A DNA stretch of 64,000 bases from Siphonodentalium dalli (Eukaryota; Mollusca; Scaphopoda; Gadilida; Siphonodentaliidae), in assembly GCA_032622095.1 (NCBI GenBank), contig CP136064.1, forward strand, positions 260,255,863 to 260,319,862. Reading direction: 5' to 3'. Position numbers and translations under genes: made by a program. The notes beneath the pieces were generated by a model, which was not told the DNA's origin, ran no database searches, and worked only from the letters and a program-made list of their open reading frames with translations. Shown here piece after piece: positions 303 to 52,936 of the stretch. Numbering within the stretch: the first letter of the stretch is position 1; every line of letters begins with the position of its first letter.

Positions 303-724
303 CTTATAACCTTTCCATGACTGGAGCTTCCTGAAATTTTCTGAAAACCCTGTGCCAATGCATTCTCTTATATATGCGAGTCTCCCATATAAGAAAATGC
401 ACTTGCTTACAAGGTCGAGGTAAATATTGTTAGGCCAATGCATTCTCTTATCCTCCCATAGGGAGCCTCGCATTTATAAGAGAATGTATTGGCACAGGGT
501 TTTCGCAAAATTTCACGAATCTCCAGTGCATTCTCTTATATATGAGATTCTCCCATATGGAGGAGCCTCGCATATATAGAGAATGCACTGGCTTACAAAG
601 TCAAGGTAAATATTGTTAGGCCAATGTATTCTCTTATTCTCCCACAGGGAGCCTCGCATATGAGAATGCATTGGCACATGGTTTTCGCAAAATTTCAGGA
701 ATCTCCAGTCATGAAAGGGTTAAA
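303..724. mobile_element. TTAA MITE family B, diverged
   Basis: The inverted ends read ACCTTTCCATGACTGGAG and CCAGTCATGAAAGGGTTAA. Between them are repeated, partly decayed copies of the CCAATGCATTCTCTTATATATGCGAG hairpin. The right TTAA is intact; the left reads TTATAA. The CCCTTT ends and TTAA target suggest a piggyBac-type origin, which is an inference. Confidence 0.7.
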
Positions 725-751
725 TGTTATGTGATGGTACATATATCTATA

Positions 752-1005
752 CAAGCCTTGAAATAGGGTGTCTGTCATTTGCAGAATGAGGTCCCCAGAG
801 GGTGAATTTAGTGATGATACCCCGCATAGCGGGCTAGCATCACCAAATTCACCCTCTGGGGACCTCATTCTGCTTACACCTCAGCAGAATGAGGTCCCCA
901 GAGGGTGAATTTGGTGATGCTAGCCCGCTATGCGGGGTAGCATCACTAAATTCACCCTCTGGGGACCTCATTCTGCAAATGACATACACCCTATTTCAAG
1001 GCTTG
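752..1005. mobile_element. hAT-type MITE with 8-bp target duplication
   Basis: The full element runs from CAAGCCTTGAAATAGGG to its complement. It is flanked on both sides by TATCTATA (744-751 and 1006-1013), an exact 8-bp target duplication typical of hAT transposition. It inserted into the TATCTATAAATG tandem repeat that continues on both sides. Confidence 0.88.
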
Positions 1006-1130
1006 TATCTATAAATGTTATGTGATTGTATCTAAATGTTATGTGATTGTATCTAAATGTTATGTGATGGTACATGTATCTATAAATGTTATGTGATGGT
1101 ATTTATAAATGTTATGTGATGGTATCTATG
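1006..1130. repeat. 22-23 bp tandem repeat (AAATGTTATGTGATGGTATCT)
   Basis: About five imperfect copies of a unit containing AAATGTTATGTGATGGTA. A further copy sits at 722-745, left of the inserted hAT MITE, so the array predates that insertion. Confidence 0.75.
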
Positions 1131-1197
1131 ATACTGTTGTTGCAATTTCATTTATTGAAAATGATCAGAAAATCCATTCTTTCTTACATTGAGTGTT

Positions 1198-1540
1198 TTA
1201 ACCCTTTACCCAACAGAAGGGCCCTGTGCCAATGCATTCTCTTATATATGCGAGTCGACCATAGGTCGCCTCGCATATATAAGAGAATGCATTGGCTTAA
1301 CACATTAAATTTTTTTAGGCCAATGCATTCTCTTATATATGCGAGGCGACCTATGGCCGACTCGCATATATAAGAGAATGCATTGGCACAGGGCATAACT
1401 GTAACCATCACAATGTGGTCAATGAGCCGGTTCCAATGATATCCATATGTGTATGGTTCTATTGAGACAGACCGAAGATATTTTAGGCTGTTGAAGCTTT
1501 ATTTGGCCGGTTTTGGCCGGTTTGTTGGGTAAAGGGTTAA
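1198..1540. mobile_element. TTAA MITE family A, full copy
   Basis: Bounded by TTAACCCTTTACCCAACA and the complement ending in TTAA. It holds two near-perfect ~70-nt hairpins (1228-1295, 1318-1386). Next to them is a single-copy arm with the family signature ACAATGTGGTCAA...GAGCCGGTTCCAATG. Its right TTAA ends 26 bp before the exon that starts at 1567, so it lies in the distal part of that intron. Confidence 0.85.
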
Positions 1541-1566
1541 AGTGAATTCTCTGGGCTTTTTTTCAG

Positions 1567-2294
1567 AATCCAGCAGTGGTTTGCAAGTTGTAGATGTTAT
1601 GGTACCAAAAACGACACCAAGCTCTAATACAGGGGCTGGTGGCAACAATAGACCTGGTGGCATTCTTGGCAGCCTTTTCGGAGGTGGCAGAGGTGGTAGC
1701 CTCATGGATATGCTCCTGCGAGGACAAACAGGAAGCCCATTAGGCGGAAACATGGGAATATTAAATTCAATTTTGGGCGGAAGAAGTGGAGGAGGTGGTA
1801 CTTCGCAACTATTACAGAGCCTGATTGGTCGAGGCGGTCAGCAGACACAAACAGGAAGTTCATCAAACAATGTCCTGCAAAGCATTCTGGGTAACAGCGG
1901 ACTGGTAAATGGACAAACCCCAGCACTGAATAACCTTCTACAGCAGATAAGGGGCAATGCCGTGTCGACAGGAACACAGGCTAACACTCAAGGCATTCTG
2001 GGTAATGGCGGACAGGCTAATGTACAAAACCCTGCACTGAATACACTTATGCAGCAGATACGAGGTAATGCTGGCTCAACCGGAACACAGACTAACTCGC
2101 AAAACGCTAATTTGAATGCTTTAATGCAAGAAATCAGAGCTCAAGCTGGACAGGCAGCGGCGACGCAACAAAGTGGAGGGGGTATCAACCCACTGTTTGG
2201 ACAGTCGTCATCGAACACCAACTCAAATCAGCCCAACGGAGGAACCAGTAGCAACAGTCTGGCCAGTTTGTTTGGATCATTTGGGCGGAAATGA
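1567..2294 (+). CDS. Terminal exon of a Gly/Asn/Gln-rich repetitive protein
   Basis: This is the last coding exon of a gene whose earlier exons lie left of the window or in repeats here. The acceptor is a run of T followed by CAG, ending at 1566. The reading frame is open from there to TGA at 2292-2294 and enters with two bases of a split codon. The ~242 residues are low complexity. A Gly-rich part contains GGILGSLFGGGRGG. Three imperfect repeats of a block like NPALNTLMQQIRGNAGSTGTQ follow, then a Ser/Asn-rich tail ending SLFGSFGRK. There is no recognisable domain and no membrane segment in this exon. Such composition occurs in secreted structural proteins (shell or byssus matrix) and in disordered intracellular proteins; the sequence does not decide between them. 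The clean frame, the acceptor and a polyadenylation signal 22 bp after the stop make it a credible exon. Confidence 0.72.
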
Positions 2295-2316
2295 GTGGGA
2301 GGGTCCCAATGAAATT

Positions 2317-2322
2317 AATAAA
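2317..2322 (+). terminator. Polyadenylation signal AATAAA
   Basis: AATAAA lies 22 bp after the stop of the Gly/Asn-rich exon. A mariner-like hairpin MITE starts 33 bp further on, so the 3' UTR is probably very short. Confidence 0.6.
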
Positions 2323-2354
2323 CGTTTGAAGTCAGAGACAACAATCTGTAAAAG

Positions 2355-2568
2355 TACAGTAATGCTCTAATTAATCGACCTCTTAACCAAAGCAGAATTA
2401 TGGGTAACTTTTCTGGATTTAGTCAGAAATATGGCTTGTTGCCATTCATCGGAAAGCTCTCGGGGAGAGCTTTCCGATGAATGGCAACAAGCCATATTTC
2501 CGACTAAATCCAGAAAAGTTACCCATAATTCTGCTTTGGTTAAGAGGTCGATTAATTAGAGCATTAAA
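2355..2568. mobile_element. Mariner-like hairpin MITE (family E)
   Basis: A nearly perfect ~100-bp inverted repeat with TACAGTAATGCTCTAA at the left and its decayed complement at the right; the centre reads GGAAAGCTCTC. Other copies are at 24270-24461, 27391-27605 and 41997-42213. TACAGT ends in a TA context suggest a Tc1/mariner-type origin. Confidence 0.82.
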
Positions 2569-2734
2569 GTAGCTTACAGTATGTAATGAGTGTGTGATAA
2601 GTAAAACACTCAACACCATGGTGATATTTTTTGGAGTGTGATTTTATAGTGATCCACTCAGCACCGAAAGCTTGAGTGGCGAGGATTAGCGAGCGCTATG
2701 GTGTGATTAACATGATGGTGGCAGTTTTATTAAA

Positions 2735-3510: not shown

Positions 3511-3516
3511 TTAAGC

Positions 3517-3550
3517 CCTCCAGGCTAGGATTTCTGTCGACTCATATTAA
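3517..3550. repeat. 34-bp direct repeat, left copy
   Basis: CCTCCAGGCTAGG...CATATTAA is identical to 3927-3960, exactly 410 bp away. The two copies bracket a family-A MITE that has lost its right end. Confidence 0.85.
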
Positions 3551-3922
3551 CCCTTTACCCAACAAACCGGCCAAAAAAAGCTTCAACAGCCTAAAATATC
3601 TTCGGTCTGTCTCAATAGAACCATACAAATATGGATATCATTGGAACCGGCTCCTTGATCACATTGTGATAGTTACAGTTATGCCCTGTGCCAATGCATT
3701 CTCTTATATATGCGAGTCGACCATAGGTCGCCTCGCATATATAAGAGAATGCATTGGCCTAAAAAAAATCTTTTTTTAACACTTTTTACCATTTTTTCTT
3801 ACATTCTTTAACAATTTTATAATTTTTAATGTGTTAAGCCAATGCATTCTCTTATATATGCGAGGCAACCTATGGTCGACTCGCATATATAAGAGAATGC
3901 ATTGGCACAGGGCCGTTCTGTT
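3547..3922. mobile_element. TTAA MITE family A with right terminus missing
   Basis: The left TTAACCCTTTACCCAACA end and both ~70-nt hairpins (3682-3757, 3838-3907) are present. The right end stops at CCGTTCTGTT. The final GGGTAAAGGGTTAA is replaced by a second copy of the 34-bp left flank. Confidence 0.8.
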
Positions 3923-4190
3923 CTAGCCTCCAGGCTAGGATTTCTGTCGACTCATATTAATCCGCTCAATGCAAATTCACCATGGATCACAACAAACAAT
4001 AAATCACTGTGAATCCCGATTATCCAGTGTTGAGTGTTTTGCTTATCGCTCACTATTTAAATACTGTATGTGTACACAAACAGCCAGTAAACACATCAGA
4101 ACCCGTCTGTTGGTAGCAAACTCATGTAGCTCAAATAAACACAAATTAACCCCTGCACAAAGAGAAACAACTGCAATGTGTTTATAACTT

Positions 4191-5545: not shown

Positions 5546-5910
5546 TTAACCCTTTACCCAACAGAACGCCCAGAAACGCCCTAACAGCCTAAATTATCTT
5601 CGGTCTGTCTCAATAAAACCATGGAAATATGGGTATCATTGGAACCGGCTCATTGAGCACATTGTGATAGTTACAGTTATGCCCTGTGCCAATGCATTCT
5701 CTTATATATGCGAGTCGACCATAGGTCGCCTCGCATATATAAGAGAATGCATTGGCCTAAAAAAAACTTTTTTTTAACACTTTTTACCATTTTTTCTTTA
5801 ATATGTGTTAAGCCAATGCATTCTCTTATATATGCGAGGCGACCTATGGTCGACTCGCATATATAAGAGAATGCATTGGCACAGGACCGTTCTGTTGGGT
5901 AAAGGGTTAA
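5546..5910. mobile_element. TTAA MITE family A, full copy
   Basis: TTAACCCTTTACCCAACAGA and its complement end at TTAA on both sides. Two ~70-nt hairpins are at 5687-5757 and 5813-5881. Confidence 0.87.
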
Positions 5911-7625: not shown

Positions 7626-9181
7626 TGTTGAATGTACAAATTAAGTCACAGTTAATAGTGATTAAAAATCTATAATAAAAATTAGAGCAAAACATATTGT
7701 TATTAGTCGATGCATATATGTAGATAGTTGGTTGGAAGTACGAACAGTTTAAACAATATCTTTCTTCCAGAAGGCATATAAGTTTATCACTTCCGTGTTA
7801 TTAAAGCTCATTTTGTTATATTATGCAACAACTAAGGTCTAGTGTCGATTGTCAATGCCTTCGCGGATCAAACGTGTGAAAAATCAAATGAAATGCAGCC
7901 TCGTTTCCTGTGTGTTAATCCGACACATCCGTTATAGGTTGTGACATTCATTATTTCGTCACCTCTTTAAGACCAACATATCAGGTTGAATAACACGGGT
8001 GCTTGTCCCGGCGATTCGAAATGGCCATCGGCTTAAAATTACACTCAAAACCAAACACCAAATATTTTAAGAACAGTTTGCTTCCTTTGTGTGGCATCAC
8101 ATCGGTAAATCAAAGAAAAAAGCCGACGCGTAACTCAGATGAATGGTTGTCACTTTATGGCAAAATCTGATTAGCACGTGCACTGCTTTCTGACGTCATT
8201 TATGTTATGATTTCTTTTGAGAAACTGACATGTCTGGCTGGGTAGGGCCAGTTACTTGCTAAAGTACCGGCACATGTGTGGAAATTAAGATTGAAAGGGA
8301 GGACTACTTTCACTACGTATATACATTGGCACCTACATGTTATCCTTTACAAATAGTTTTTCTCACTTCATAATCATTGCTAGGACGGACGAGCGTTACC
8401 GTGCGAATTTCATTCACACCGAAGAAAAAGAAATCACTTAGGACGAAATTATTTTGCATAATTTTTGTCTGGCACATTATTAATTATTATTGTGCGCAGA
8501 CGTGTCCTGGAACATGAATTGAGTCAGTCTTAAATCATATCAAGACATAATAATTTTTCCCTACTTTGTATATCGTTTTTATTTTATGCCCAATCAATTC
8601 CGGCAATTAGCACCATGCACTCACTCCAGCTCACAGTCTCATAAACCGCCCAGCCGCCAGCGCTTGCAAGAGTTAGCGACAGTATCTAGGAAGTAATACA
8701 GAGGCGTGGTTAAATCGGAAACGAGATTCCCCAATTATGTGGTTCATACGAGACGAGGCTGAATGTGAAGCTATCTGTTGTGCTGTGGTTGATCAGATTG
8801 ACGTCTCGGTAGTATATGATTATGCAATCAAGGGGAGTTGATGGCTATCATATATTGGGCACAATTGTTAATCGCCTTCGCATGTAGCAGTATACATGCT
8901 TTATTCACTTCAATCATGGGCAGTGTTTTTGATGAGAGACGGGAAGTATCCACAAGCCCAACTATATCTTCGACAATCATTCCAGCCCAATTATATCTTC
9001 GACAATCATTCCGCAGAGTGTTCATGATATAGTCGTGAGGCGGAGTCGATTGAAAAATGGCAAATATGATTGGGTCAACTATATTGATAATAGTGTTGAG
9101 TCGTAAACGCTACAGCGAAGGTACCATGTGATTTCAGCAATTCCCAAATAAACAATCCGGTTTATAAAATAAGTTGGTGAA
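7626..9181. other. No gene recognised
   Basis: Mostly unique sequence. A ~28-bp tandem duplication (ATATCTTCGACAATCATTCC) is at 8957-9012. No splice-bounded frame or RNA gene was found. Termini of the decayed transposon at 7017 were sought here without success. Confidence 0.5.
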
Positions 9182-9435
9182 CAAGCCTTGAAATAGGGTG
9201 TCTGTCATTTGCAGAATGAGGTCCCCAGAGGGTGAATTTAGTGATGCTATCCCGCATAGCCGGCTAGCATTACCAAATTCACCCTCTGGGGACCTCATTC
9301 TGCTTACACCTCAGCAGAATGAGGTTCCCAGAGGGTGAATTTGGTGATGCTAGCCCGCTATGCGGGGTAGCATCACTAAATTCACCCTCTGGGGACCTCA
9401 TTCTGCAAATGACAGGCACACTATTTCAAGGCTTG
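9182..9435. mobile_element. hAT-type MITE with 8-bp target duplication
   Basis: CAAGCCTTGAAATAGGG to its complement, flanked by TTGGTGAA at 9174-9181 and 9436-9443. The exact duplication supports a hAT-type mechanism for this family. Confidence 0.88.
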
Positions 9436-9528
9436 TTGGTGAATACGAGCCCAGAAGTTTTATTTTTGCAAGAATATAGAGTGGAAGGTATTTTTATCAA
9501 CGGAATGTGACAGGAAATATATTGTTAG

Positions 9529-10466
9529 TTAACCCTTTCAGTGCCAGGGACCGATCTCATTGGCCCTAATTTATGGTCTGTAAAATCGTCCCTAAAAATT
9601 GAATTTTTTTTTTTTTTATAGATTTTTTTGGGTTGATTTTTTTGGGTATGCTTAAAGGCACGTGCGGCCTTAATTGTCGAAAATATTCATATTTGTTCCA
9701 AACACCGTAAACAGAAAAACATTAAAACGCATACAGTTCCGTTCATATATACCATGACCATCGCGTAAACAGCATGTTATCATAAAGACCTACTATATTT
9801 TACCTAAGCAAGAGTCTGATTGTGTTACAGAAGACAGCACAATGCTACTGGCTAATCACACACAAATGGCATAAACGCTCTTTATTAGTTCCATATCAGG
9901 TATTCACCAACAAAGAACGCTCTTTATGTTTACCATCATAATATAAACAAACACCAGAAAAGTTACTTTTTATGCTTTTGTTTACATAACAATGGTCAAA
10001 CTTATGACCATAACATACTGTTTATGCGATATTTCTTATTTGTATACGTACACAGTCTGACTACATTTTGATGTTCTTTCTGTGTGTGGCGGTTTTTGAC
10101 GGGTGTAAATATTTTCACAGGATACCCACCGCCAAGGCCAACCGTAACTTTAAGCATGCTATAGCGAATTTAAAAACAAACTGGTTAAAACCTTAGGGGC
10201 ATGTTATAACTCAAAACTATCACCAAGTATTCATAGTAATAATTTTGATGCCCATGAAAAATGTAAGATTCCCTGGCACTAAACCAACAAAATAAGTTTG
10301 TTAAAGAATATAAGAAAAAATTATTAAAATTGTAAAAAATTGTAAAAAATAATAACAAATAATGAAAAATTGTTAGGCCAATGCATTCTCTTATATATGC
10401 GAGTCGACCATAGGCACAGGGTATATGGGTTGATACAAAAATCGGACCTGGCACTGAAAGGGTTAA
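9529..10466. mobile_element. TTAA MITE family C, long copy
   Basis: Inverted ends TTAACCCTTTCAGTGCCAGG and CCTGGCACTGAAAGGGTTAA enclose ~940 bp. The interior has only half of the shared hairpin (10377-10416) and ~800 bp of sequence absent from the short family-C copy at 52051-52284. The long copy may be closer to the parental transposon, but no transposase frame is seen. Confidence 0.8.
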
Positions 10467-11675: not shown

Positions 11676-11908
11676 TTAACCCTTTTATGACAGGAGCTTA
11701 CTGAAATTTTGGAAAACCCTGTGCCAATGCATTCTTTTACATATGCGAGTCTCCCATAGGGCCTAACAATATTTACCTTGACCTTGTAAGCCAGTGCATT
11801 CTCTTATATATGCAAGGCTCCCTATGTGAGACTCGCATTTATAAGATAATGCTCTGGCACAGGATCTTTAATGATGAACCAGTGCAGCTCCCGTCATGAA
11901 AGGGTTAA
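11676..11908. mobile_element. TTAA MITE family B
   Basis: TTAACCC at the left and CCGTCATGAAAGGGTTAA at the right, with shortened hairpins inside (CATTCTTTTACATATGCGAG, GGCTCCCTATGTGAGACTCG). Confidence 0.8.
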
Positions 11909-12926: not shown

Positions 12927-15900
12927 CTGGAATTAAATCATAATGAATATGAGTATTTGATAGTCTGGCAACAATGATGCAAGTTTGCATGCGTTGGGGG
13001 CGATGTCTTCTCCATCAACATTGATGGCAGGAAAAATAAAAATATTTAGATTTTTTTTAAATAACTCCAGCAAAGTGATGTGAATAACATCAGTAGACCC
13101 TCTCTGATAGCAATCAATCAAACAAAATTACACTGAGACCCATTACTACGTCTTAAGGACAACAACCCTCCAACAGCTATTTTTAAATAAAGGAGAAAAA
13201 CAAATTAATTGGGCAATTAAAACAATATGTAAGTGTACAATGAAGAAACCAGTTACAGGTTAACATATCCCATGATGGATGCTATAACATTCAAAATAAC
13301 TTTAAAGTGATGTGAAACGCTCCGGTTGGGTGTTCAAATGGAAATGGAGAATAATCTTGCTGAACCCTTTAACCAACAAAGCGGCCAAAAACGCCCAAAT
13401 AAAGCTTCAACAGCCTAAAATATCTTCGGTTTGTCTCAATAAAACCATACAAATATGGATATCATTGGAACCGGTTCATTGACCACATTGTGATGGTTAC
13501 AGTTATGCCCTGTGCCAATGCATTCTCTTATATATGCGAGTCGACCATAGGTCGCCTCGCATATATAAGAGAATGCATTGGCCTAAAAAAAATCTTTTTT
13601 TAACACTTTTTACCATATTTTCTTACATTCAGGCCCCACGCTAGGAGGCGACTCGGGCGAGAATTTCGCCCTCGGGCCGGCGAAGTCACCCTCGGATGTC
13701 CGCAAGGCGAAAACGAAGTCGCCTTCCAAATTTGACAAAACTAGCTCAGGATTTACGGTAATTTTACCGGTGAAAATTAGACTCGTTTCTGCTCGTTTTG
13801 CAAAACAAATATATATAGTCTCAACTGTTCCAACGAGGCATTTTATTTATAAATTATACATGGTGTACCCTATCCACATATTCTAATCAGATTGGGTGCT
13901 TTTGGAAATGGCAAATTGCGCTGAGCAACGAAGTTTATGATGAGCTACTGGTTCGTTTTAAGGAGACTGGAATTTAGACCTTACTTCCGTCGGGTCATTT
14001 TGTAACCGCAAATTGTATAGCCATACATGGTTTCCACTGCTCATGCAGTAGCCAAAGTGAACAAATAATACTGTCTTTGAAATTAAACTAATACATATCT
14101 ATGAATTTTCACTTTTACAAAAGTAGTTTGTGTCGGATTCCGTTTCCCAATCCAACTTTTTACTTTTTGGAATTGCATTTTATTTTGTTTACAAACAAGA
14201 ACACGTGCTTGCTTACTATTAAACACAGAGGTTTGAATGTGCGTTGGAAGTACTTAATTTAATGTTCTTAGTTAAATCAAAGATCTACATAATAAACTAT
14301 TACTATCCAAACTCATTTAAAAGGATTAATTTGTGTCAAAACTATGTGTTTGCAAATTACAATTGTTGTCAATCTATCGCTCAGACCACGTGCTCCGCGT
14401 ATATACCGGTACGTCTTGCAAATTAATTGCATGTAGGCCTACTTCGTTACAATGCAGGTATTTAAATAACCTGCTGGTGCATATTATAAGCTCAACTGGT
14501 CTCTGTTAAGAACACATTAACCACTATTGTGACACGGCTATCAAACTCGTCAAGTTTATTGCTTTAATCGGATTATAATCAGACAACACTGACGGTCGTG
14601 ATGTAGTCCAGACTAAATTAAAAGCTTTTACACCTCCTTAATTAGTCCTTATTGTTTATTTTAACGGACACCCACATTACAGCAATGGCCAAAAGCCATT
14701 TCCAAAAATTTAAATTTATAATAACAATTCAGATATTAAAAGTTATGAAGTAGACAATTAATTTCTTCAGATAAAAGTCAACAGTTTAAAAAAAAATTAA
14801 AGTGATAAATTTAGTTAAAATTTTAGATTATCGATCTATACAGGTGCTATACTTGTGTTGTATCTTGCTAAATATGTTTTATCTTGTTGTTTTATCTTAT
14901 TTATTGATGTGCAGATAAATAAAGCGAATTTTGAAAATTAGTAAGTATTTTTTTTTATAAGTCTCCCTATTCTGGCTCAAGTCTCCCTAAAATCTGCAGA
15001 GGGAGACTTCATTTCTCCCTGTTTTCAATACCTAGCTTGGGCCCTGCTTACATTCTTTAACAATTTTATAATTTTTAATGTGTTAAGCCAATGCATTCTC
15101 TTATATATGCGAGGCGACCTATGGTCGACTCGCATATATAAGAGAATGCATTGGCACAGGGCCCTTCTGTTGGGTAAAGGGTTAAAGTAGTTATTATTAC
15201 GAATATTAATCCAAATTTCCAGCACACACACCGTCATTCTTATATATTAATTAAATCCAATGACTCACGATGGCAAAATCATTTGCGTTAGTTTATCACT
15301 GATTGTTGCGTCCCGAATTATGATGTAAATATTTACAATTATGCGTAGTTCAAACGATGATAGCTATGGAGTGGTATTGTCGATTTATGTGAGATTTTCG
15401 GGGATGTTAGTAGATTGCTACATTCCCACAGTTGTCATAGCGCCTGAGTACTAACTTATCAGTTTCACACACCCGAACAAGTCCGTAATATGTCTTTAAA
15501 AGATGTTATCAACTCCTCAGTCAATCTGACCTATGCTGAGCTCAAAATATCACAAGAAAACTGTGGTGCTATCTGTTTTTCGTGTGCGGTATTTTCATGT
15601 TACCTTACTCGTATTTAAATTCGCGCAGTACTAATTTAAAACTGAGCGAAATATAATATACGACTCCCAAGTTTAATCTATAAGATAAAATAAAAGAGTG
15701 CTATGTTGCTGAGTTTACATATATTATGAACGGTTGAATAGAAAATTACGCCTATACATGTATGCATATATTTACATTCGGCTAACCGCTATCCAGACCT
15801 TGCTCACGATCCTAACAACAAATCATGGTAACGTAGATATTGTTGAAATGCTTGTATAAGAAATATTAATAGTCCAGGTCGCCACAAAATTATGATGTAT

Positions 15901-18900
15901 GCGGTTACTAGTTTATTGTCTGCACGATGTAAATCCGCCGCGATGGTGTTTAATATACACATATACTAAATCCAGCAATGACTAAGAGCCGAAACTGTCA
16001 TCAGCTCCAAGATAAACGAAAATATCACAGAATTATTACAAAATAGTTTTCTCAGTTTTGAATTCGCGCAGCTAGGTGCGCGAATTTAAAGTGCGCGAAT
16101 TCATAACTGAGCGAAAAATAGTACTGCGCGAATTTAAATACGAGTAAGGTAGGTAACATCTAGACAAACTGAATGGTCAATCGCCTCAAATTTTCAAGCC
16201 TGCTGAGTTAATTTAATCACCTGGTTCATATTTCATGCGTAGCTCTTGATTCTTCAGCGTGATATTCATATTACGGTTTTCCAGTTTAGTCTTCTCTTTC
16301 TCGATCTCAAACAAATCTTTCTGTAGCTGTAAGGCTTTATTCTTTTCATCCAGTAAACTAAGGTTCCTATCGGCTAACTCCTGTCGAAGAGATGTGAGTT
16401 CCTCCCTGTAATGAACAGAAACAACAAGTTCAAGCTGGTGTAATACAAATGTAGAGGTTGTTGGCCTCACGTCCCCCAAGAAGGTGGCTTAATTCGACAG
16501 TTGGCTTTCTTTTATGAACAAGAAAGATAAATTTCAGTCTGAATGAACCCAGACTATTGACAGAGTTCATACAGTAAATTGAAGGCAAATTACCATGACT
16601 ATTCCTGTTTGTTATATGCTTGCAGAACTGTAGATCATAGTATGTATCTCTTAGAAGCCACAGTGAAATAGTGTTGAAACGATTATCCGACTAATCAACG
16701 TCAACGTGATAATTAAATTAGTTATCCCAAAATCTGCTAGTTGTTAGTTGGGGAAAAACTACTACCTATTTGCTATCACGATAGCAGTGCCATTGGACTT
16801 AATTATAACACTTAATTAGCATGCTAGAGCCCTATTGTATTGTTCATTTTGATGATGCCAGCATGGCCGCTGCTGTCAGTCATGCACTAACAATGAACTC
16901 AGTGAACTGAACTCAACTTAAGTGCACATATCGGATTGGTTTCTTTTTTGTTGATCATAAAGACTTCAAAGAATCGGTGCCGATTGCTACACTGTGACGT
17001 AATTGATCAGTGATTATTTATTTTATTGGAAAAAAGTGTACTAGAATAGTCATCCCCATAAAATGGCTCAAAGAATATATGAAATGTCTGTTCACATCGG
17101 GAAGCGATCCATGTTTGATCAGAAGTAAGCACCAGTAGAGCGGATTCAGTGGAACATTTTCACGAAAAATAATTGTTGCCCAGCCACCTGTTTATTTCAC
17201 TTAAATTGCACTTCCGTTTTCGGACTCAAATTATGGAGCCATTCACCAGCATATGTATCTATCAAACACTATTGTGTTTATACCATATGGCGCATTTTAT
17301 ACCTATGTCAATAGAAATAGAAAATTTCAGGACGGGTCCGTCTAATTGACGAGTATTCAATTACCTCTGTCGACTCCTGAAAATTCTAAACTGTTTCAAC
17401 ACAACAGTGAAATACGAATTCATTATTTCACTGTGCATATCTTTTGTTATTTCACTGTAGCTTTATGGCGGCTTATGCAAGTGCAAATAAATATGCCCAG
17501 TACATACCGGACTCTACCTGTTTGTAAACACTGACACATGATCTTCAATTAAGTAGAGTTAATAATTTAATTTAGCAACTTTGAGCATTAACCCTTTACC
17601 CAACAGAAGGGCCCTGTGCCAATGCATTCTCTTATATATGCGAGTCGACCATAGGTCGCCTCGCATATATAAGAGAATGCATTGGCTTAACACATTAAAA
17701 ATTATAAAATTGTTAAAGAATGTAAGAAAAAATGGTAAAAAGTGTTAAAAAAAGATTTTTTTTAGGCCAATGCATTCTCTTATATATGCGAGGCGACCTA
17801 TGGTCGACTCGCATATATAAGAGAATGCATTGGCACAGGGCATAACTGTAACTATCACAATGTGGTCAAGGAGCCGGTTCCAATGCTATCCATATTTGTA
17901 TGGTTTTATTGAGACAGACCCAAGATAATTTAGGCTCTTGAAGCTTTATTTGGCCGGTTTTGACCGGTTTGTTGGGTAAAGGGTTAATAAGGCACATATT
18001 ATAACAAGAGCATCACTAGGGAGTGGCAACATATGCCATAATCGGCTATAACTCAGGTGAAAATTGCAGGCAGAACCCAAATTCAAACTTGACCTGTATT
18101 TTGGGCTAGTAAACTCACCAGATCAGACTTACTAAAGTTATCATATGGAAACGAAAAAAGTGAACGGACGGACAGACCGATGGACCGATAACATAGGTTG
18201 TTTTTTCCCAAAAGTGCCTATAAATAGAATGCCTACTTTTTTGTTTGAATACTTCAAACATCTCAATCTTGTCTGGAAATAAATATTGAATTTTCACTCA
18301 GGGCTCTTTTGATAATTCTTTCCAGAAACTCATGAGATATGTCGGCATTCAAACAAAAACTGTGCGTATTCTCTATTTAGATCTACTCTGATAATCAGTG
18401 TATTTTTAAATCTTCAACCAGGTTTCCATCATCAACTCTGCCAGTGATATTGGTAGATGCTGACAAAATGAACATTCCATCGAGGCCTGAGAATATGGTG
18501 CTGGACATTTGCAGAATAAGGTCACAGCGGGCTAGCATCATCCTCTGGGGACCTCATTCTGCATGGCCGCATCTGCTATGGGAGACCTAGATACAGATTT
18601 AAGTTCCCAGATGGTGATGTTCACCCGCTGGGCACCACCCATTGGGCACCTCAATTATGCATTGTGTAATCTGCCAATTTGGGGATGTAGAGAAACTAAA
18701 CTAAAAAAGAAACTTTCTAAAGAAGTTTCTAAGGAAACTAAAATACTTGATAATTTGATAACAATAATAAGGCCAAAGCATAATGAGGGCCACAGAAGGT
18801 GTATTTAGTGATGCTAGCCCACTGTGCAGGGTAGCGTCACTAAATTCGCCTTCATTTCACAAGTACATGGTCGAGATTTGGTTTATTTTCAATTATTTAT

Positions 18901-21900
18901 CAAAATTTACTGTATTTTATTCTTATACTCAATTTTCTTGGTGATGGTATATTTCAAGTTCATATTCATTCGATTGGATTTATTAGTCACATCTGTGTGG
19001 TCTACTTCATTCATATTGTGTAATCACATACAAACAAATATTTCAGATACTTTTCCTTAACTTTTTTACGCCATGAGTGAGATTTCCGGTCTATTCCAAG
19101 AGCCTTGACTCGTGGGGTAGACCGCCAATATCACAAGTGGTGTAAATTTGTTTTATAGATATACTATCTGTATATTATGCAGTAAGGTCGCGAAAGGTCA
19201 AACTGTCTGTAGTTCCTACTTTGTGTATATACTATTTCAATGAAAAAGAAACGGCGATCTATATACGGGTTGTACCGCTATATACATTTAGTGCCGAATA
19301 GAGCAAATGATTATCCTACTGATGTGCACATGTAGTAAAACACCCGATCGTGGTATATATAACCTTGGTGTGGTCTGCTCTCCTACTTGGGAAATAATAC
19401 TCACTCTTTGCATTTTATGATAGTAGTTAGATATTTTGCGTAATCACTGTCTGAACTAGTGTTCTTTGTATCAGCATGTTCTTGGTTGAATTCTTCCAAT
19501 TTCTCCAAATAACTTTTCTACAATATATAATTAATACCATTGACATATCTATGTTTATCCATATTTTCTCACCACATGCAACTATCACACTCTGCTAATC
19601 CCCAGGTTAATCGGGCAAATAAAAGATTTTCTGAATTTCTGTAAACAATTGCACATGTTAGGATACATTTATATATATTTATATATGTAGTTTTTGTAGA
19701 CATGAGTAGCTCTAATCACCGACTACATTTGACAACATGGTAAGCGACATCTCCCTTCACGTAGGCACCATTTGATTGCACAAAACAGTTCTCATTTCTA
19801 ATTACACGTTCCAATACAGACCCAAGATGCCACCTCAGTGGTGTACCTTAGACATAAAACTTTAGGAGGCTGTAAACGTCACTAATACTGTGTAGACGTA
19901 CCTGTAAACGTCACTAATACTGTGTAGACGTACCTATAAACGTCACTAATACTGTGTAGACGTACCTGTGTCTTTTCTAGTTCATCCTTCTCTTTGAGGA
20001 GTTTCATGATATTGTCCCTGGCCTTCATTAGCTCCTCCTGTAGGTGTTTTACTTGGTCATTGTCTGCCGTTCCAGTGGACATCTGTAGCAATACAACCAT
20101 TTGCATCTGGAGAAGAGAATTTATTATTATCTCAAGCGTGACATACGTTTATAAAATAATTTTGTACTCATTATGTATCTTTAATAGTGTGGCCTTGAAT
20201 ATTCTATGATTTCCCTATGGAAATTTTGAGGAACCGTTCAAGTAGTGCTCTTTCTGAGAGTCTGTATTTGGAATAGAGGACATCAATTGCAATCTTGAGG
20301 CTTCGGAACCTGTTATTGATCGAACTTCAATTAGTTTTTGGATACTTTGTGTCAAGGTTGTTAAAAAAATAGTAAAATTAGGTATATTTGCTTGTTTGAT
20401 AAAAGTATAAATTCTAGTTAGTTTCATTGTGAATATCAGATATTTTTTGCCCATTTGCCTAAGTCTTCATCTGTTCAACACACCCAATGCGGGTTTTGTA
20501 AAATTTCCTCGATAAAAAAATTATGTTTTATTTATGGTTGTAACTATGCTATTTATAGATTACTCTGGTTACCAAAAACATTCTATTCATTTTTGCCCCG
20601 GGTAAATTACCCATTCCACACTAGCGTCATAATTGGAATTAGCCCCTGGTGGTAAAGATAATACACAACAATATGCAAATACTAATCGTGTGAATAAAAT
20701 ACCTGATACCTTAAGCTTGTGGTGTTGTTGTTTCTCTAATTCGTACTTCTTCTTAACGGCGTCATACTCAGCTTTCATATTGATAACAACCTTCTCTGCT
20801 GCTATCCTTCGGTCTTCGACCTATAATGACATCGGTCCAAATTAATAAGAAATAGAATCTGACTGTTCCAAGGTTTGCAGTTTCATACATGAAACTAATA
20901 TAAAACTCTTGGTAAAAACTCTTAGTAAATGCATTAAGTTTCAATAACATTTACCGCCAAATGTAGGAATAAAAGCTCGGACAAATTTCTAAGTTAAAAA
21001 AGGGAACAACTCTACTAAGAAAAGTCATATGGACCTCATAATTGCAGGTGCAGAGGTTCCAACGGTACTAAATATCTGTGCCAAGTCTTTTTTTTTACAA
21101 AAAACATTTCTGAAAAATGTAGGAATACAAGCTTGTGCAAAGTTGTGTCCACGGATGGACAGACACACAGACAAGCTGATTCCTATATACCGCCTCATAA
21201 CTTCTTTACGAGGATATAATTACAATGATTACAAAAATAAAACAATAATTTATCAATTCAGCTCCTGCCTAAAATTTCTGTTCTCACAGACAGCATAGCA
21301 GACGTCAGATATATTAAGATTATTATCGGTGATTTATGTCATACTTCATTCCTTGGGTTTTGTTTGTAGTATCATTTAACCCTTCCATGACTGGAGTTTC
21401 CTGAAATTTTGCGAAAACCCTGTGCCAATGCATTCTATTATATAGAGTCTCCCATAGGGCACCTCGCATATATAAGAGAATGCACTGGCTTACAACATCA
21501 AGGTAAATATTATTAGGCCAATGCATTCTCTTATATATGGGAGGAGTCACCCACAGAGAGCCTCGCATATATAAGAGAATACATTGGCCTAATAATATTT
21601 ACCTTGATGTTGTTAGCCAGTGCATTCTCTTATATATGCGAGGCTCCCTATGGGAGATTCACATTTATAGAGAATGCACTGACACAGGGCAGTTTATGCT
21701 GCACTAGCGCAGCTCCCATCATGAAAGGGTTAAAGATGTTGCATCTCGTCCTGGCCACACTTACAATAACAACATAATTTTTATAAAACCAGATTTCAAG
21801 ACTACAAACAACTATTTCCTAAGGTAACTACTCATCAATGATGCTTTTAGTATAGAAAGGGTTAAAGATGGTCTATCTCTTCTGGGCCACAATAACAACA

Positions 21901-43345: not shown

Positions 43346-43348
43346 TAT

Positions 43349-47534: not shown

Positions 47535-50500
47535 GTACGTCTGGTCTGTGACACCCATGAGTATATGTATTTATTATATGACTATCGTTTTTCTTTCCCC
47601 AATACCGCTATTGTATAGCGATAATTTGCAGTTTGATCCGATGTCATACCACCCTTCCTCATCTCGCATACTGCGCATGACCGGAAAAAGCAGGACAGTT
47701 CTTTCTTTATTTTTGATACTAACGAGCGTGTGAATTGGTTTCATTTCATAATTAATGAGAGAAATTGTGCTTTTTAAATAAAAAATCATGTGGTTTTTAA
47801 ATAAAAAGCATTTCATATAATAAACCTGTTATCGCTGCAGTGAATTGATCTGGGCTTCGCATCACGTCTCGTTGAAGAGGTCAGATCGCTGGATCAAACT
47901 CGACGCCTGCGGCGGCTCGTTTGATCCAGCGATCTGACCTCTTCAACTCGACGTGATACTTCGCCCCAGATCAATTCACTGCATCGATAACATGTATGTA
48001 TGGCCTTGAGACACATGCGATAAATACACATACGTCTGATCTCGGCAGGGTCGTGGCGGGTATTTGTTTGGCGTGGGGGGGGGGGTGTTCAACTTCTAAT
48101 TTCGAATCCATGTCCCCCCCCCCCGAGACTAAAACTCCACCTCTTTAGTTGGAATTTTCCAACTCATATATAGCTCAGACTGTAAAACTGGTCGGCTGTA
48201 TGGTTGAACATTTCCATCTGAAAATTTTATTGAAAGTATGATAATACTTAAATATTTTCTGAAAATAACTTATTTTATTTAATTACATAAGTTTTGGCTG
48301 GAAAAGTTATTACACTATTTTCAACCTACTCTTTGGACTGAAATTTCAACCTTGATTTTGGGTAATGTTTGGGGGTGGGGGCTATAGAAATCACCGGTGT
48401 CAGTGTCTTTTTTTATCTTCAATAATAATAGATGAAATAAAAAAAATGAAAAATGTGGTATGTGAGCTTATTGGTAGGGGCTCAGGTCAAGTTCGAATTA
48501 TGGGTGACATTTGCCTTTTTTCTGCAGTTATGGCCCTTGTTGACTTATTTTGGTTTCCGAATGATAACTTTAGTTTTACTAGTAGTTATCTGATTTTTTT
48601 TAAATTTCATATATGGAGTACTCTCATGAAAATATAGGTCATGTTTAATTTGTGATCACCTCATAGACTTAGAATTTACTGATTATTCTGGTGTCTAATC
48701 AAATAAAACCAGGTTCGTTAACAACATAAGATGGCTGGAAGCAAAATTTGATTCAATGATTGTTCCCAGAATAAAAAATTTCATTTCTGAAAAAGTCACC
48801 AGTCAAATTAAGCCACCTTATTCGTGGGGCATGTGGCCTAGCGACCTTTTATCATTGTTGAAATCGGCAAGCTTTAGAATATCATATTCCTTTTATACGC
48901 CCTTTAAAAAAAAAGGTTGTATCATGTAATCAGTCTGTCCGTCCGTCTTTCGTACCATCTTAACATTTTTGGTTTCCAACCGATAACGCCCCAGCAGTGC
49001 ACTTGTTATGTTTTCCTCTCTCTCTCTCTCTCTCTACAGCATCATATGAAATATCAATAAAGTAATCAATCAGTAATTGTCTTGTCCGTTTCAGGTGAGA
49101 AGCCTTATAAATGTCTTGTTACTGGCTGTAACAGAGGCTTTGCTCAGCTGTCCAATCTGCAGCACCATATGCGAAATCATGATGATCAAGTTAAGAAAGC
49201 ATCCTCTAGAGCATACCAGTGTTCTACGTGTCACAGGACATACGCATTCGAGAACAGTCTGAGAAATCACACTCTCAAGGTAAACATGCCTGCAAATAGT
49301 GTGTCTGTCATTTGCAGAATAAGGTCTCCAGAGGGTGAATTTAGTTATGATATCCCACATTGTATATCAAATATGTGACCCGCCATATCAAATCCAGTCG
49401 TAAGTCGGGATTTTTTTCACCCTGTGCCCATGCATTCTCTTATATATGCGAGTCGACCATAGGTCGCCTCGCATATATAAGAGAATGCATTGGCTTAACA
49501 ATTTTTTATCATTTTTTTTAAATAAATGTTTCTTACAATTTTTAGGACATAAAATAAAAAAAATCCATTACCCTGCAGGGAGCCCCACACATATAGAGAA
49601 GCATATAGAAGAGTGTCGTCTGCTCATGTTTGTCTGGGGCTCTGTATGGGTGAAATTATAAAATTGTTAAAGAATACAAGAAAAAATTATTAAAATTGTA
49701 AAAAATTGTTAGGCCAATGCATTCTCTTATATATGCGAGGCGACCTATGGTCGACTCGCATATATAAGAGAATGCATTGGCACAGGTAAAAAAATCCCGA
49801 CTTACGACTGGATTTGATATGGCGGGTCACAATTATCACAGAGGGTTAATTTAGTTATGATATCCCACACAGTGGGAACCTTCTTATGCTTAGGCCTCAT
49901 CTTCTGGAAAGTATCTATAGTCTCAAATTAAATTTATTTTAGTTACTTTTTCCCTTCTGTTCAGTTTCTATGATACCCTTAATTTGCAGAAGATAAAATG
50001 CATAATCGAGGTGACTAACAGGCGAACGTAACCAACTTCAACTGGGGAACTGGGGAATTTCAATTGATCCTAGGTCTCCCATAGCAGTTGAGTCCTAAGC
50101 AGAATGAGGTTTGCAGAGGGTGATTTGGTGATGCTAGCCCTGCATGCGGGATAGTGTCACTGAATTCACCCTCTGGGGAACTTATTCTGCAAATGACAGA
50201 CACACTATTTGCAAACATGAAGATAAAGGCCAAAATCCAAGATGGCTGCTGTCGAAAATAAAAAATCATTCAAATTCTATAGCTCCTATCAAGACGTGAT
50301 CCAAAACATTCCTGTAAATTTTCAAAACAAATTCTCCAATAAATGCTGGTTGCAGGGTGCGCGGTGGATTCAAATTTGAAATCCAAGATGGCTGCTGGTG
50401 GCCATGTTTTTAGCGAATTTCGGGAAAGAAATGACCGCTCCCATCTAGAGGTCACCCTGAAGATCCCTGAGGTTTGGTGATGACCGGACGAGGCAGGTGG

Positions 50501-52936
50501 CCTGTAGGGTGTGCCAAAGGCTTTGGTCATACAAAGATTAAAATCCAAGATGGCTGCTGGCAGTCACAATTTTCAATGAAATATGGAAACAAATTATGGC
50601 TCCCATCTGGAGGTCACCCAAAAGATCCATATGAAGTTTGGTGACAATCAGATGAGGGATGTGGTCTGTAGGGTTTGGCAAAGGATTTAGTCATGCAAAG
50701 AGTAAAATACAAGATGGCTGCTGGTGGCCATTTTTTTCATAAAAAATTGATATCTCCTATCTAGAGGTGATCCAAAACATGCCTGTAAATTTTCAAAACA
50801 ATTCTCCAATGAATGTGGGCTGCAGGGTGTGGCGATGGATTCAAATTTGAAATCCAATTTCACAAAAAAATGATGGCTCCCATCTAGAGGTCTCCCTGAA
50901 GATCCATATGAAGTTTGTTGACGATCGGATAGAGTCATAGAGATGTGACCTGTAGTGTCTGCTAATGGAAATTGTTGACAGACGGACAGATGGTGGACGC
51001 CAACCTATGGCAGTAGCTCAAACTTGATTTCGTCAAGTTGAGCTAACAATAAAGATGTAAAAAAAGATGACTTTAATCATATTTTTAGAAAGGATATTTT
51101 GGGAGGAGCTTTCTCAGCAAGTATACAAATTGATTGGAAATGCATAAGTGCCATAAAAAGTACATGATTTGAACTAGTGAAAGGTTAAAATGACTATTTA
51201 TTTAATTTTTGAAATTTTATTGTTCTATATTATGCTTGATGTGGTCTTCAGTTAGTATAGATTCCTTCATGTGGTGTACTAGCTTATTAATTAAGTAGTT
51301 TTCTGTGTAGGTCACTCTAAACTTTCCATAACCTGAGATAGGCTCGGCGTGGAAACCCCTTAACCCTTTCATGACGGGAGCTGTGCAGTTGCAGCATTAA
51401 ATACCCTGTGCCATTGCATTCTCTTATATATGCAAGTCTCCCATAGGGAGCCTCGCATATATAAGAGAAAGCACTGGCCAACAAGATCAAGGAAAATATT
51501 GTTAGGCCAATGCATTCTTTTATATTTGCGAAGCACCCTATGGGAGACTCTCATATGTAAGAGAATGCATTGGCACAGGGTTTTCGCAAAAAATCAGGAA
51601 GCTTCTGTCATGAAAGGGTTAGTAATTGATTTTATAACTGATGGGAGATTCCATTTAGTATAAAAAGTATTCATGATTCCAGTCTTCGAGTAAAAACATC
51701 ATGCAAGATCTGATTTTAACACAGTTTACATGTATACTTTGTTCTGCTTAAAATAAAATGTTGGAAAGCAAATGTGACATAAAAACTAGACCAAAACAAA
51801 ACTGCATTTTGTTGCAATGTGTTTTTTAGCTCACTGATTTCAACCATTGTTGTTATACAATCGCTTACCACACTGTCTCAAATTAGTGTGAAAATCAGGT
51901 TTATCCCTAGAATGTTGCTGATTTTGGGGTTTCCAGATGGTCACTTAAGTAATTGTGTTCCTACCTGCCCGTGTTTGAATTTGTACCATGGGTGTATGCC
52001 AGCACTGGCAGTGAAACTTCTTGTTTCCGTAAACGATGAACAACAATTTGTTAACCCTTTGAGTGCCAGGGGCCGATCTCATCGGCCCTAAACCTACAAA
52101 ATAAGTCTGTTAAAGATTATAAGAATAAATTATTAAAATTGTAAAAAAAAAAAAAAATTGTTAGGCCAATGCATTCTCTTATATATGCGAGGCGACCTAT
52201 GGTCGACTCGCATATATAAGAGAATGCATTGGCACAGGGTATATGGGTTGATACAAAAATCGGACCTGGCACTCAAAGGGTTAAACTTTATTCTTATCAG
52301 TATCTTCTCTAATTCATTTAACAGGTTCATACGAAGGACAATTCTTCTGAAAGTTTACCGACAAAAACATACGAGCCACCAATAATGGTTCCTGTAACAT
52401 CAGCTCCTGTGTTTTTAGTGAAAAATATTATCAGTGACTCAACTAACTGTGAACAACAAAACTCTGGACGATCTGTTAGCGTCTGTAGTCCAAGAAGAGA
52501 TGGTGCATCAGACCTGACTCCTATACACCACTCTAGTGCGCCAGATTCAACGTTAAATCAGACATCTCTGGAAATGTTATCAGAACTAACTCCTATACAC
52601 CACTCTAGTCATGAGATGAAAGTATTGCCAGATTCATCATTTAAACAGACATCTCCGCAACCGTTCCTTCCAAAACAAATCGGATTAGAATCAAGACACA
52701 ATTATAATCAAAGATATGATGATTATGTCCGGAGTCAACATGGAAGAAGTTCGGAATGTTTCATTTCTCAAAGTAGCATTGCTTCAAGTTCTGACGATGC
52801 TGGCGCTCTGGTGCAAAACTTACCTGTTCACATGGGAGATAACTCTCCTGTGGCAATCACACATCATGAGGTTTCTCTACCAGGAGATATCAGTGATTGT
52901 GTTCAAGAAATTGTTATATCTAGTACAGATAGTTGA
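47296..52936 (+). CDS. C2H2 zinc-finger protein, rotund/LIN-29/ZNF384-like (whole gene)
   Basis: A nuclear DNA-binding protein by its fingers. The coding join is 47309-47534, 49095-49279, 52325-52936, giving 340 residues, with phases matching at both junctions. The four fingers are at residues 26-46, 54-74, 82-104 (C-x4-C type, CLVTGC) and 118-139. Intron 1 cuts exactly inside the TGEKP linker between fingers 2 and 3. Intron 2 falls inside the H-x4-H of finger 4. FKQLSHLQQHARIH and CNRGFAQLSNLQHHMRNH closely resemble the paired fingers of rotund, squeeze, LIN-29, ZNF362 and ZNF384, so that group is the best guess. It has fewer fingers than those proteins. The C-terminal ~200 residues are Ser-rich and disordered and repeat LTPIHHSS twice. 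Upstream ATG at 47216 is an alternative start (371 residues). Confidence 0.85.
47830..47995. mobile_element. Hairpin element in intron 1
   Basis: GTTATCGCTGCAGTGAATTG to CAATTCACTGCATCGATAAC, arms of about 75 bp meeting at CTCGACGCCTGCGG. Confidence 0.78.
48360..49060. repeat. Intron 1 repeats: one ~160-bp-family unit and (TC)n
   Basis: CGAATGATAACTTTAGTTT near 48556 is one diverged unit of the family at 44360. CTGTCCGTCCGTCTTTCG is near 48931. (TC)n is at 49015-49035. Confidence 0.6.
49095..49279 (+). CDS. Zinc-finger gene 1, exon 2
   Basis: Acceptor GTCCGTTTCAG, donor AAG/GTAAAC. GEKPYKCLVTGC completes the linker split by intron 1. It encodes finger 3 and most of finger 4 (YQCSTCHRTYAFENSLRNH). 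A hAT-type MITE begins 5 bp after the donor. Confidence 0.88.
49285..50219. mobile_element. Long hAT-type MITE, interrupted by element D
   Basis: CATGCCTGCAAATAGTGTGT at the left and CACTATTTGCAAACATG at the right; long-variant centre at 49900-50090. Confidence 0.75.
49374..49831. mobile_element. MITE family D, carrying the shared hairpin core
   Basis: TGTGACCCGCCATATCAAAT...GTCGGGATTTTT and its complement form ~42-bp inverted ends. Two ~70-nt hairpins (49430-49493, 49712-49781) are the same as in TTAA family A. A ~32-bp stretch of host (AATTTAGTTATGATATCCCA) is present on both sides, at 49328-49360 and 49839-49872. Confidence 0.85.
50232..51050. repeat. ~160-bp tandem repeat (CCAAGATGGCTGCTG)
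   Basis: CAAGATGGCTGCTG recurs at ~50233, 50388, 50547 and 50710, spacing 155-163 bp. The array ends GACAGACGGACAGATGG at ~50979. Confidence 0.82.
51360..51622. mobile_element. TTAA MITE family B
   Basis: TTAACCCTTTCATGACGGGAG to GTCATGAAAGGGTTAG, so the right TTAA is mutated. Hairpins have GAGTCTCCCATAGGGAGCC-type centres. Confidence 0.82.
52051..52284. mobile_element. TTAA MITE family C, short copy
   Basis: TTAACCCTTTGAGTGCCAGG to CCTGGCACTCAAAGGGTTAA with one ~70-nt hairpin (52163-52231). It ends 40 bp before exon 3 of zinc-finger gene 1. Confidence 0.87.
52325..52936 (+). CDS. Zinc-finger gene 1, exon 3
   Basis: Acceptor TTTAACAG. It starts VHTKDNSSES, giving the last His of finger 4, and stops with TGA at 52934-52936. 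Two similar blocks (LTPIHHSSAPDSTLNQTS and LTPIHHSSHEMKVLPDSS) follow. No AATAAA close to the stop was found before the MITE at 52982. Confidence 0.87.
   Translation, partial: VHTKDNSSESLPTKTYEPPIMVPVTSAPVFLVKNIISDSTNCEQQNSGRSVSVCSPRRDGASDLTPIHHSSAPDSTLNQTSLEMLSELTPIHHSSHEMKVLPDSSFKQTSPQPFLPKQIGLESRHNYNQRYDDYVRSQHGRSSECFISQSSIASSSDDAGALVQNLPVHMGDNSPVAITHHEVSLPGDISDCVQEIVISSTDS

What the first reader, a model, noticed from the sequence alone, without database searches (positions are those of the whole stretch)
354..52231. One ~70-nt hairpin shared by MITE families with unrelated ends
GCCAATGCATTCTCTTATATATGCGAG, a short GTCGACCATAGGTCGC-like centre and its complement occur nearly unchanged inside four element types. 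These are family A (ends TTAACCCTTTACCCAAC), B (TTAACCC...CATGAC, with a variant centre), C (TTAACCC...AGTGCCAGG) and D (TGTGACCCGCC). Other sequence in these families has diverged more, and the termini of D are not even of the TTAA type. The hairpin may be a unit that is captured or copied between families, or it may be kept by selection, for example as a source of small RNA, a fold that helps replication, or a protein-binding site. Near-perfect copies: 1228, 1318, 3682, 3838, 5687, 5813, 13510, 15087, 17618, 17764, 49430, 49712, 52163.
Basis: partly seen in the sequence, partly recalled or inferred. Interest (0 to 1): 0.8.

Follow-up and report, generated by a model that had tools for sequence, protein, structure and literature searches.

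The report
Hairpin core swapped between transposon families

Summary
The hairpin is not a free unit. Two inverted hairpins bracket an AT-rich spacer and start sharply at CCCTGTG. This core lies in three TTAA families (A, B, C) and in D, whose target duplication is mostly ATAT. The 75-nt consensus is identical in A, C and D. Transfer is shown best by an A-ended element with a D-type core: 28 places match; 11 were read, all with different flanks, 9 with TTAA at both ends. C ends with a D-like interior match at 24 places; ordinary C copies leave that sequence at a TTAA. Dead copies lose the hairpin at about half to two thirds of the rate of neighbouring DNA, yet the aligned copies show no subfamily change in it. 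So cores are exchanged between families, and amplifying sources seem to keep the hairpin. Unresolved: how D gained it, the transposases, and two candidate solo cores with TA at every joint read. I call it a new variant of chimeric foldback-like elements such as Galileo.

The parts
1198..1540 (+). Family A element, two hairpins (1228-1296, 1319-1387), TTAA at both ends
3547..3923 (-). Family A element, two hairpins (3690-3758, 3838-3906); short end altered (outer limits approximate)
5546..5910 (-). Family A element, two hairpins (5688-5756, 5812-5880)
13361..13630 (-). Broken family A element, one hairpin (13514-13582); right limit approximate
15050..15186 (-). Broken family A element, one hairpin (15087-15155); left limit approximate
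17588..17987 (+). Family A element, two hairpins (17618-17686, 17766-17834)
49374..49831 (+). Family D element (TGTGACCCGCC ends), two hairpins (49426-49494, 49713-49781) around the D-type middle
52051..52284 (+). Short family C element, one hairpin (52165-52233)
9529..10466 (+). Long family C element; hairpin at 10377 partly deleted and turned round
11676..11908 (+). Old family B element with CTCCC/GGGAG-type centres
21376..21733 (+). Old family B element, four arms matched
51360..51622 (+). Old family B element, two hairpins with CTCCC/GGGAG-type centres; one joint reads AAATA|CCCTGTG
300..700 (.). Rearranged old family B copies with several arms (354, 467); outer limits approximate

Best explanation
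The hairpin is the flank of a core cassette (CCCTGT, 69-nt hairpin, AT-rich spacer or longer middle, inverted hairpin, ACAGGG) that lives inside several families of short elements without coding capacity. SHOWN: A, B, C and D carry it; D uses another target site; elements with A ends and a complete D-type core lie at many places, and 11 that were read sit at different sites with one and the same joint, so this chimera transposed; C ends with a D-like interior occur too. INFERRED: the many dispersed, near-identical hairpins and spacers act as homology. A break in one element (excision gap, or a break at the palindrome) is repaired from the core of another family, so insides and ends reassort. 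TTAA sites in the spacer also take nested insertions of TTAA elements, and one end of the guest plus one end of the host can move on together; this probably made ordinary C. A chimera that still has two ends accepted by a transposase is amplified. INFERRED, weaker: the hairpin is kept in amplifying sources because it helps mobilisation, for example as a subterminal palindrome bound by a transposase as in piggyBac, or because it helps exchange. How D first acquired the core is not known.
For: A/D chimera: L067; 28 of 40 scored candidates match the 180-nt A-end + hairpin + D-middle query throughout (27 at 97-100%, one at 93%), on all nine contigs; 11 read, with different flanks, TTAA at both ends in 9 of 11, and the joint CCTAAAATA|CCCTGTG in 11 of 11, one with a base change. 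C with D-like interior: 24 of 40 scored candidates match C end + hairpin + D-like middle throughout (87-100%; some are probably duplicates of each other); 11 of the other 16 stop at query base 188 and 5, from one array, at 200; the TTAA is at 183-186. In L016, L041 and L080 a C terminus abuts this point, though the TTAA itself is intact only in L016. D without core: 0 matches to one exact pattern. 67 of 67 true outer joints of the first set lie in A-D ends, several loci of that set having been picked by D ends. Hairpin orientation: outer T in 103 of 105, inner G in 97 of 103 exact arms. Same 75-nt consensus in A, C and D; 27/27 arm consensus in 24 old B arms.
Against: The A/D joint on the long side sits exactly at TA|CCCTGTG, where homologous repair inside the hairpin would not put it; microhomology or insertion of the core is needed. 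Of the 24 C places only L072 was read through, and it is broken on the far side; they may be the parent form of C and not later recombinants. Two candidate solo cores (three places) lie outside A-D ends. Stop points come from the best 40 candidates only. The spacer motif shared by A, C and D differs by 1-2 bases in 21, so the hairpin is not much better kept than the spacer; the D middle has no subfamily columns either. In B arms base 5 is G in 9 of 24, so the arm did change in one lineage. No transposase locus with A/B/C/D ends was found among 23 piggyBac loci read. Constraint in sources could be repeated exchange and not selection.
Confidence: 0.68

Rival explanations
1. The core is a mobile element of its own (ends CCCTGTGCC, target TA) that inserted into other MITEs and was then carried along by them.
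For: The boundary is CCCTGTG at every kind of joint seen. TA lies just outside it in D (TTTTA|..|TAAAA), C (CATATA|), the A/D chimera (AAAATA|), the L162/L163 core with unrelated flanks (TTTTTTA|..|TAAAAATA) and L140/L146. TA is 8.3% of window dinucleotides; 5 of 9 distinct joints with TA has p=0.0004 under independence (I chose the list of joints after seeing them).
Against: A (GG|, TG|) and most B joints (AAAA|, AAGA|) are not TA. Solo cores are rare: 0 of 67 joints, then 4 of 40, which are three places and two distinct insertions. They share a T-run with D, so they may be D remnants, although their flanks do not match the D end beyond it. No empty site seen; the interior of L162/L163 and the second end of L140/L146 were not read.
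Confidence: 0.3
2. Plain common descent: one ancestral element kept its core while its ends drifted into A, B, C and D, without exchange.
For: A, B and C share TTAACCCTTT. B1 elements (L008, L042) join B ends to an A/C/D-type core. The hairpin pair keeps one orientation.
Against: D ends are unrelated, and D shows matching 4-base flanks in 15 of 19 rows, 13 of them ATAT, none TTAA. A ends with a complete D-type core at 28 places. Similarity ends sharply at CCCTGTG, not in a gradient.
Confidence: 0.08
3. The hairpins are kept alike by gene conversion or by palindrome self-correction, without any function.
For: Palindromes and high copy number favour both. Hairpin singletons are about half those of the neighbouring arm in A and two thirds of the middle in D. 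B and A/C/D centres differ by paired changes (CTCCC/GGGAG against CGACC/GGTCG).
Against: Dead copies of C and D carry 1.2-1.4% private hairpin changes, so correction is weak. The T/G asymmetry of the stem persists, which self-correction should erase.
Confidence: 0.2
4. The hairpin is kept because it makes small RNA or is bound by a host factor.
For: Near-perfect 69-nt stem, -54.3 kcal/mol as RNA; very high copy number.
Against: No expression data on hand; no Rfam match in the window at gathering thresholds. A need for mobility would explain the conservation in sources as well.
Confidence: 0.08

Closest known systems
Galileo of Drosophila (P superfamily, foldback-like; PMC3573991, found passages including parts of the abstract)
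   Same: Many short copies dominated by inverted repeats; chimeric copies, including copies with two ends of one subfamily and the middle of another; exchange proposed as a source of new subfamilies.
   Different: There exchange is between subfamilies of one transposon, and 170 copies were studied. Here the partners have unrelated ends and different target sites, the shared part is internal, and hairpin arms number hundreds of thousands.
piggyBac and piggyBat subterminal palindromes (PMC11707139, found passages)
   Same: TTAA-type transposons; palindromes inside the ends, bound there by cysteine-rich domains of the transposase.
   Different: Those palindromes are 14-19 bp; here the stem is 69 nt and is shared with a non-TTAA family. 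Binding was not tested.
Tm1 of root-knot nematodes (Mutator/foldback; PMC3169594, abstract and section headings)
   Same: One family with composite, foldback-like inverted repeats includes a hairpin-motif group and a MITE-like group.
   Different: Low copy, a histone hairpin motif, 9-bp target duplication, one superfamily.
SINE families sharing a conserved central domain (recalled; PMC3272025 seen only in a search listing with the start of its abstract)
   Same: One conserved internal domain with differing flanking parts.
   Different: Those are retrotransposons.

Membership tests
piggyBac-type MITE (A, B, C) | TTAA at both ends of the element | tested here: met
   One search lists 18 facing TTAA-type pairs in the window and 20 random loci, 15 with arms; 4 of the 15 are chance inner or wrong pairs by my reading, leaving 11 real A, B or C elements. 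TTAA at both ends in 9 of 11 A-ended chimeras with different flanks.
piggyBac-type MITE (A, B, C) | An autonomous element in the same genome with the same ends | tested here: inconclusive
   128 matches to PF13843, some elements counted twice, many with open frames; 23 loci read (3 with 1.5 kb on each side, 20 as 800-base stretches downstream), none with these ends or the hairpin.
piggyBac-type MITE (D) | TTAA target duplication | tested here: not met
   19 rows from 18 D elements: 0 TTAA; 15 with matching 4 bases, 13 of them ATAT.
Galileo / foldback elements | Chimeric copies joining parts of different groups | tested here: met
   A ends, D core; C end, D-like interior.
Galileo / foldback elements | P-superfamily transposase | not tested
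   No search for this transposase was run.
TA-target (Tc1/mariner-like) MITE, for the core alone | Solo copies flanked by TA on both sides | tested here: inconclusive
   One core with both joints read has TA on both sides (L162/L163); rare, interior not read, and no empty site seen.

The most novel reading that the evidence does not exclude
The core is a parasite of transposons: a hairpin-ended mobile cassette with ends CCCTGTGCC and target TA that jumps into other MITEs of different superfamilies, is amplified by their transposases, and through its palindromes makes its hosts recombine, so that new MITE families arise by pairing the same core with new ends.
Probability: 0.27. Interest if true: 0.8.

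Novelty: new variant of a known kind. Interest (0 to 1): 0.6.

Why it matters
New MITE families are usually traced to deletion of an autonomous parent (recalled). Here one internal cassette is combined with at least four sets of ends, across two target-site types, and a chimera is seen to have spread. That makes family birth by exchange directly testable, shows that classing elements by ends alone can mislead, and gives a natural experiment on which internal sequence an amplifying MITE must keep.

Tried and rejected
A fifth MITE family as the home of the L140 flank: 2 exact matches in the genome (the two places already seen) and 7 more at 2-3 mismatches, so not a high-copy family. A symmetric C parent with C joints on both sides: no facing pair within 500 bases among the 100 exact C places listed; not excluded. 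D ends without a core: none by one exact pattern. A without a core: the pattern search did not complete. Autonomous partner: none among 23 piggyBac loci read; the other matches were not read. An Rfam family in the window: none. Naming the species: one paper search gave no fit. Three arm strings are in no held paper. Two paper searches aimed at MITEs sharing an interior but not ends and two wider ones showed no such case in titles and abstract starts, which is all I saw of those hits apart from PMC11707139; the library lacks most subscription papers.

Not used: the mean divergences (its 45-nt flanks include genomic DNA and its cores include indel copies; only its consensus is used) and for D (two copies lay in the opposite orientation; one search replaces it). 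One search stopped with an error after the A part; one search repeats the same A counts for hairpins, spacer and long arm, and differs only in the short end. In one search the script filed 10 chimera long-side joints (AAAATA) under A_short, and some elements count twice; I use its joint letters, not its totals. In one search three of the 24 arms have 7-9 differences because of indels, which inflates the 10.5%.

Rows dropped. A set: 21 copies = 8 from the window and random loci + 13 of the 20 fetched (dropped: L059 cut short, L060 and L061 near-identical in flank to L055 and L056, L065-L068 rearranged). D set: 15 copies; L030-L035 and L045 (truncated, rearranged, nested or duplicated) and L089 (L029 in reverse) left out. 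C set: 22 copies; L072, L076 (D-like middle) and L085 (6 bases, a slip of mine in the coordinates) left out. L002, L003, L004, L006, L032, L046, L047 left out as repeats of other loci.

Sampling limits: the 20 'random' 10-kb stretches lie in the first 150 Mb of the contigs; 5 of 20 hold arms. Most other element loci are from contig C1 and were chosen by exact matches to an arm or an end, so divergence in the matched stretch is biased low, and joints of loci picked by A, C or D ends say nothing about solo cores. In the 40 joints several are second ends of elements already read.
Full report
WHAT IS THERE. The window is bases 260,255,863-260,319,862 of contig C4 of an unnamed 2.23-Gb genome in nine contigs, each 190-301 Mb long. 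All 13 positions named are full hairpins within 8 nt. In the whole genome the arm matches 240,072 times forward and 238,964 times reverse, control 0. Of 20 random 10-kb stretches 5 hold arms.

ANATOMY. The hairpin is 69 nt: a 27-nt arm, a centre (T-CGACC-ATA-GGTCG-C) and the second arm; as RNA it folds into one stem at -54.3 kcal/mol. It usually comes as an inverted pair: CCCTGT, hairpin, an AT-rich spacer or a longer middle, inverted hairpin, ACAGGG. The stem is not a perfect palindrome: after an exact outer arm the next base is T in 103 of 105, after an inner arm G in 97 of 103. So the pair is inherited as an oriented unit and not as loose hairpins. I call this unit the core. Family A has one short and one long flank; B is old and diverged; C has one hairpin; D is symmetric.

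ENDS. A, B and C begin TTAACCCTTT and are bounded by TTAA. D begins GTGACCCGCC. Of 19 rows from 18 D elements 15 have the same four bases on both sides, 13 of them ATAT, one AATT and one ATTT; 4 do not match. None shows TTAA.

NUMBERS. With up to 3 mismatches: outer joint plus arm 239,165; A short joint 52,894; D end 26,708; C joint 18,135. B and the A long joint were not counted genome-wide.

IS THE CORE EVER ALONE? In the first set, 68 candidate outer joints after dropping 7 redundant loci, 4 were unclassed by the script; by eye these are one inner arm, one altered A and two B, so 67 of 67 true joints lie in A-D ends. That set includes loci picked by D ends. In a second set of 40 joints from C1, picked by the core alone, 36 lie in A-D ends and 4 do not. 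L162 and L163 are the two ends of one core of about 355 bases with unrelated flanks, TTTTTTA|core|TAAAAATA; its interior was not read. L140 and L146 share one flank at two places, one end read at each. These flanks do not match the D end beyond the T-run, and the L140 flank has two exact places in the genome. I treat these as two candidate solo cores. D without a core was not found with an exact palindromic pattern; the tool warns that absence is not proof.

DIVERGENCE. Private changes (singletons) per site. A, 21 copies: hairpins 12/2731, spacer 22/1403, long arm 29/2976 (hairpin against long arm p=0.018). D, 15 copies: hairpins 25/2055, middle 63/3262 (p=0.047), terminal repeats 10/1508. C, 22 copies: hairpin 20/1473, tail 16/660, terminal repeat 9/1072. 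Terminal-repeat values are biased low because most of those copies were picked by exact ends. So dead copies lose the hairpin at about half to two thirds of the rate of their surroundings; protection is weak. Counting instead columns where at least three copies share a minority base (subfamily changes): hairpins 0 in A, C and D; A long arm 8 of 153; C AT-run 8 of 68; A spacer 1 of 79; C terminal repeat 1 of 50 and left D terminal repeat 1 of 52; but D middle 0 of 231 and C tail 0 of 42 (A hairpins against A long arm p=0.008). The 75-nt consensus is identical in A, C and D; that of the B1 copies differs by one base. In the old B family 24 arms differ from the arm by 10.5% on average, yet their consensus equals it at 27 of 27 positions; base 5 is split, A in 14 and G in 9. 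The B centre differs by two paired changes (CTCCC/GGGAG). An unconstrained lineage drifting that far would keep all 27 bases with a chance of about 5%, so this alone is modest. Amplifying sources seem to keep the hairpin; selection and repeated exchange cannot be told apart here.

CHIMERAS. L067 has A ends, TTAA on both sides, and inside them the complete D-type core with D middle. A 180-nt query across A end, hairpin and D middle gave 28 matches over its whole length among the 40 candidates scored (27 at 97-100%, one at 93%), on all nine contigs; the other 12 begin at the core boundary, without the A end. I read 11 of the 28: different flanks, TTAA at both ends in 9, and the joint CCTAAAATA|CCCTGTG on the long side in all 11, one with a base change. 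So one chimera formed and then transposed. L072 and L076 join C ends to a D-like middle; both are broken on the other side. A query from L072 matched over its whole length at 24 of 40 scored places (87-100%; one begins at base 6; some look like duplicates of each other), of which I read only L072 through. Of the other 16, 11 stop at base 188 and 5, in one tandem array, at base 200. Base 188 lies two bases past the TTAA at 183-186, and those two bases are the same in both sequences. In L016, L041 and L080 a C terminus abuts this point, with the TTAA itself intact only in L016. The simplest reading is that ordinary C arose when a C-type element inserted in the TTAA of a D-like core that already had a C end on its far side, and the outer ends then moved together; the 24 may then be the parent form. 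Related oddities: a D inserted in a B hairpin (L031), an A with a single merged hairpin (L065), an A with about 300 other bases between its hairpins (L068), and two nested D whose outer ends share ATAT (L034).

MECHANISM. Shown: shared core, unrelated ends, an A/D chimera that spread, C joints at a TTAA. Inferred: exchange by repair of breaks from another element's core and by nested insertion followed by joint movement; amplification of a chimera with two usable ends. Not explained: why the outer boundary is always CCCTGTG, and how D got the core. TA stands just outside that boundary in D, C, the A/D chimera and both candidate solo cores, but not in A or in most B. This is the basis of the novel reading that the core itself can move to TA sites; the joints were listed after the fact, so the p-value is only a guide.

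KNOWN RELATIVES. Galileo copies in Drosophila mojavensis include chimeras, some with ends of one subfamily and the middle of another, and its authors propose exchange as a source of new subfamilies (PMC3573991, found passages). piggyBac carries 19-bp and piggyBat 14-bp subterminal palindromes bound by the transposase (PMC11707139, found passages). Tm1 of nematodes is a foldback-like family with a hairpin group (PMC3169594, abstract and headings). I found no printed case of one hairpin core shared across TTAA and non-TTAA MITEs in the searches named in Tried and rejected, which cover open papers only.

VERDICT. Real, genome-wide, and more informative than first read: a core cassette exchanged among families with unrelated ends. 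It works like Galileo-type chimera formation; I do not file it as Galileo. A, B and C fit piggyBac-type MITEs by target site, D does not; the transposases are unknown.

Noticed in passing
window 3547-3923: The A copy here has about 34 bases of flank (TTAATATGAGTCGACAGAAATCCTAGCCTGGAGG) on both sides and lacks its short terminus, as if repaired by a template switch.
   Followed up: no
G000:C1 about 0.73-0.92 Mb: Core hits recur with periods of about 14.5 kb and 11.2 kb: large tandem arrays that contain these elements.
   Followed up: no
L068: An A element whose hairpins enclose about 300 bases that do not look like the spacer: perhaps a captured stretch.
   Followed up: no
L034 52-718: Two nested D elements; the outermost pair of ends is flanked by matching ATAT, as if the composite had moved as one.
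   Followed up: no
window 28492-28713 and L014 9006-9403: Another TTAACCCTTT family (CTATACTAAATG or CTACACTAAATA ends) in which no hairpin arm was matched.
   Followed up: no
window 19-1004, 9180-9437, 27391-27605, 27840-28095: Other long, 94-99% complementary inverted repeats, perhaps further foldback elements.
   Followed up: no
G000, for example C6:111404378-111405448: 128 matches to the piggyBac transposase domain, many in open frames of about 600 codons.
   Followed up: partly
L030 and L032: The same D insertion at C1:12475410 and, in reverse orientation, at C1:12528297: an inverted segmental duplication.
   Followed up: no
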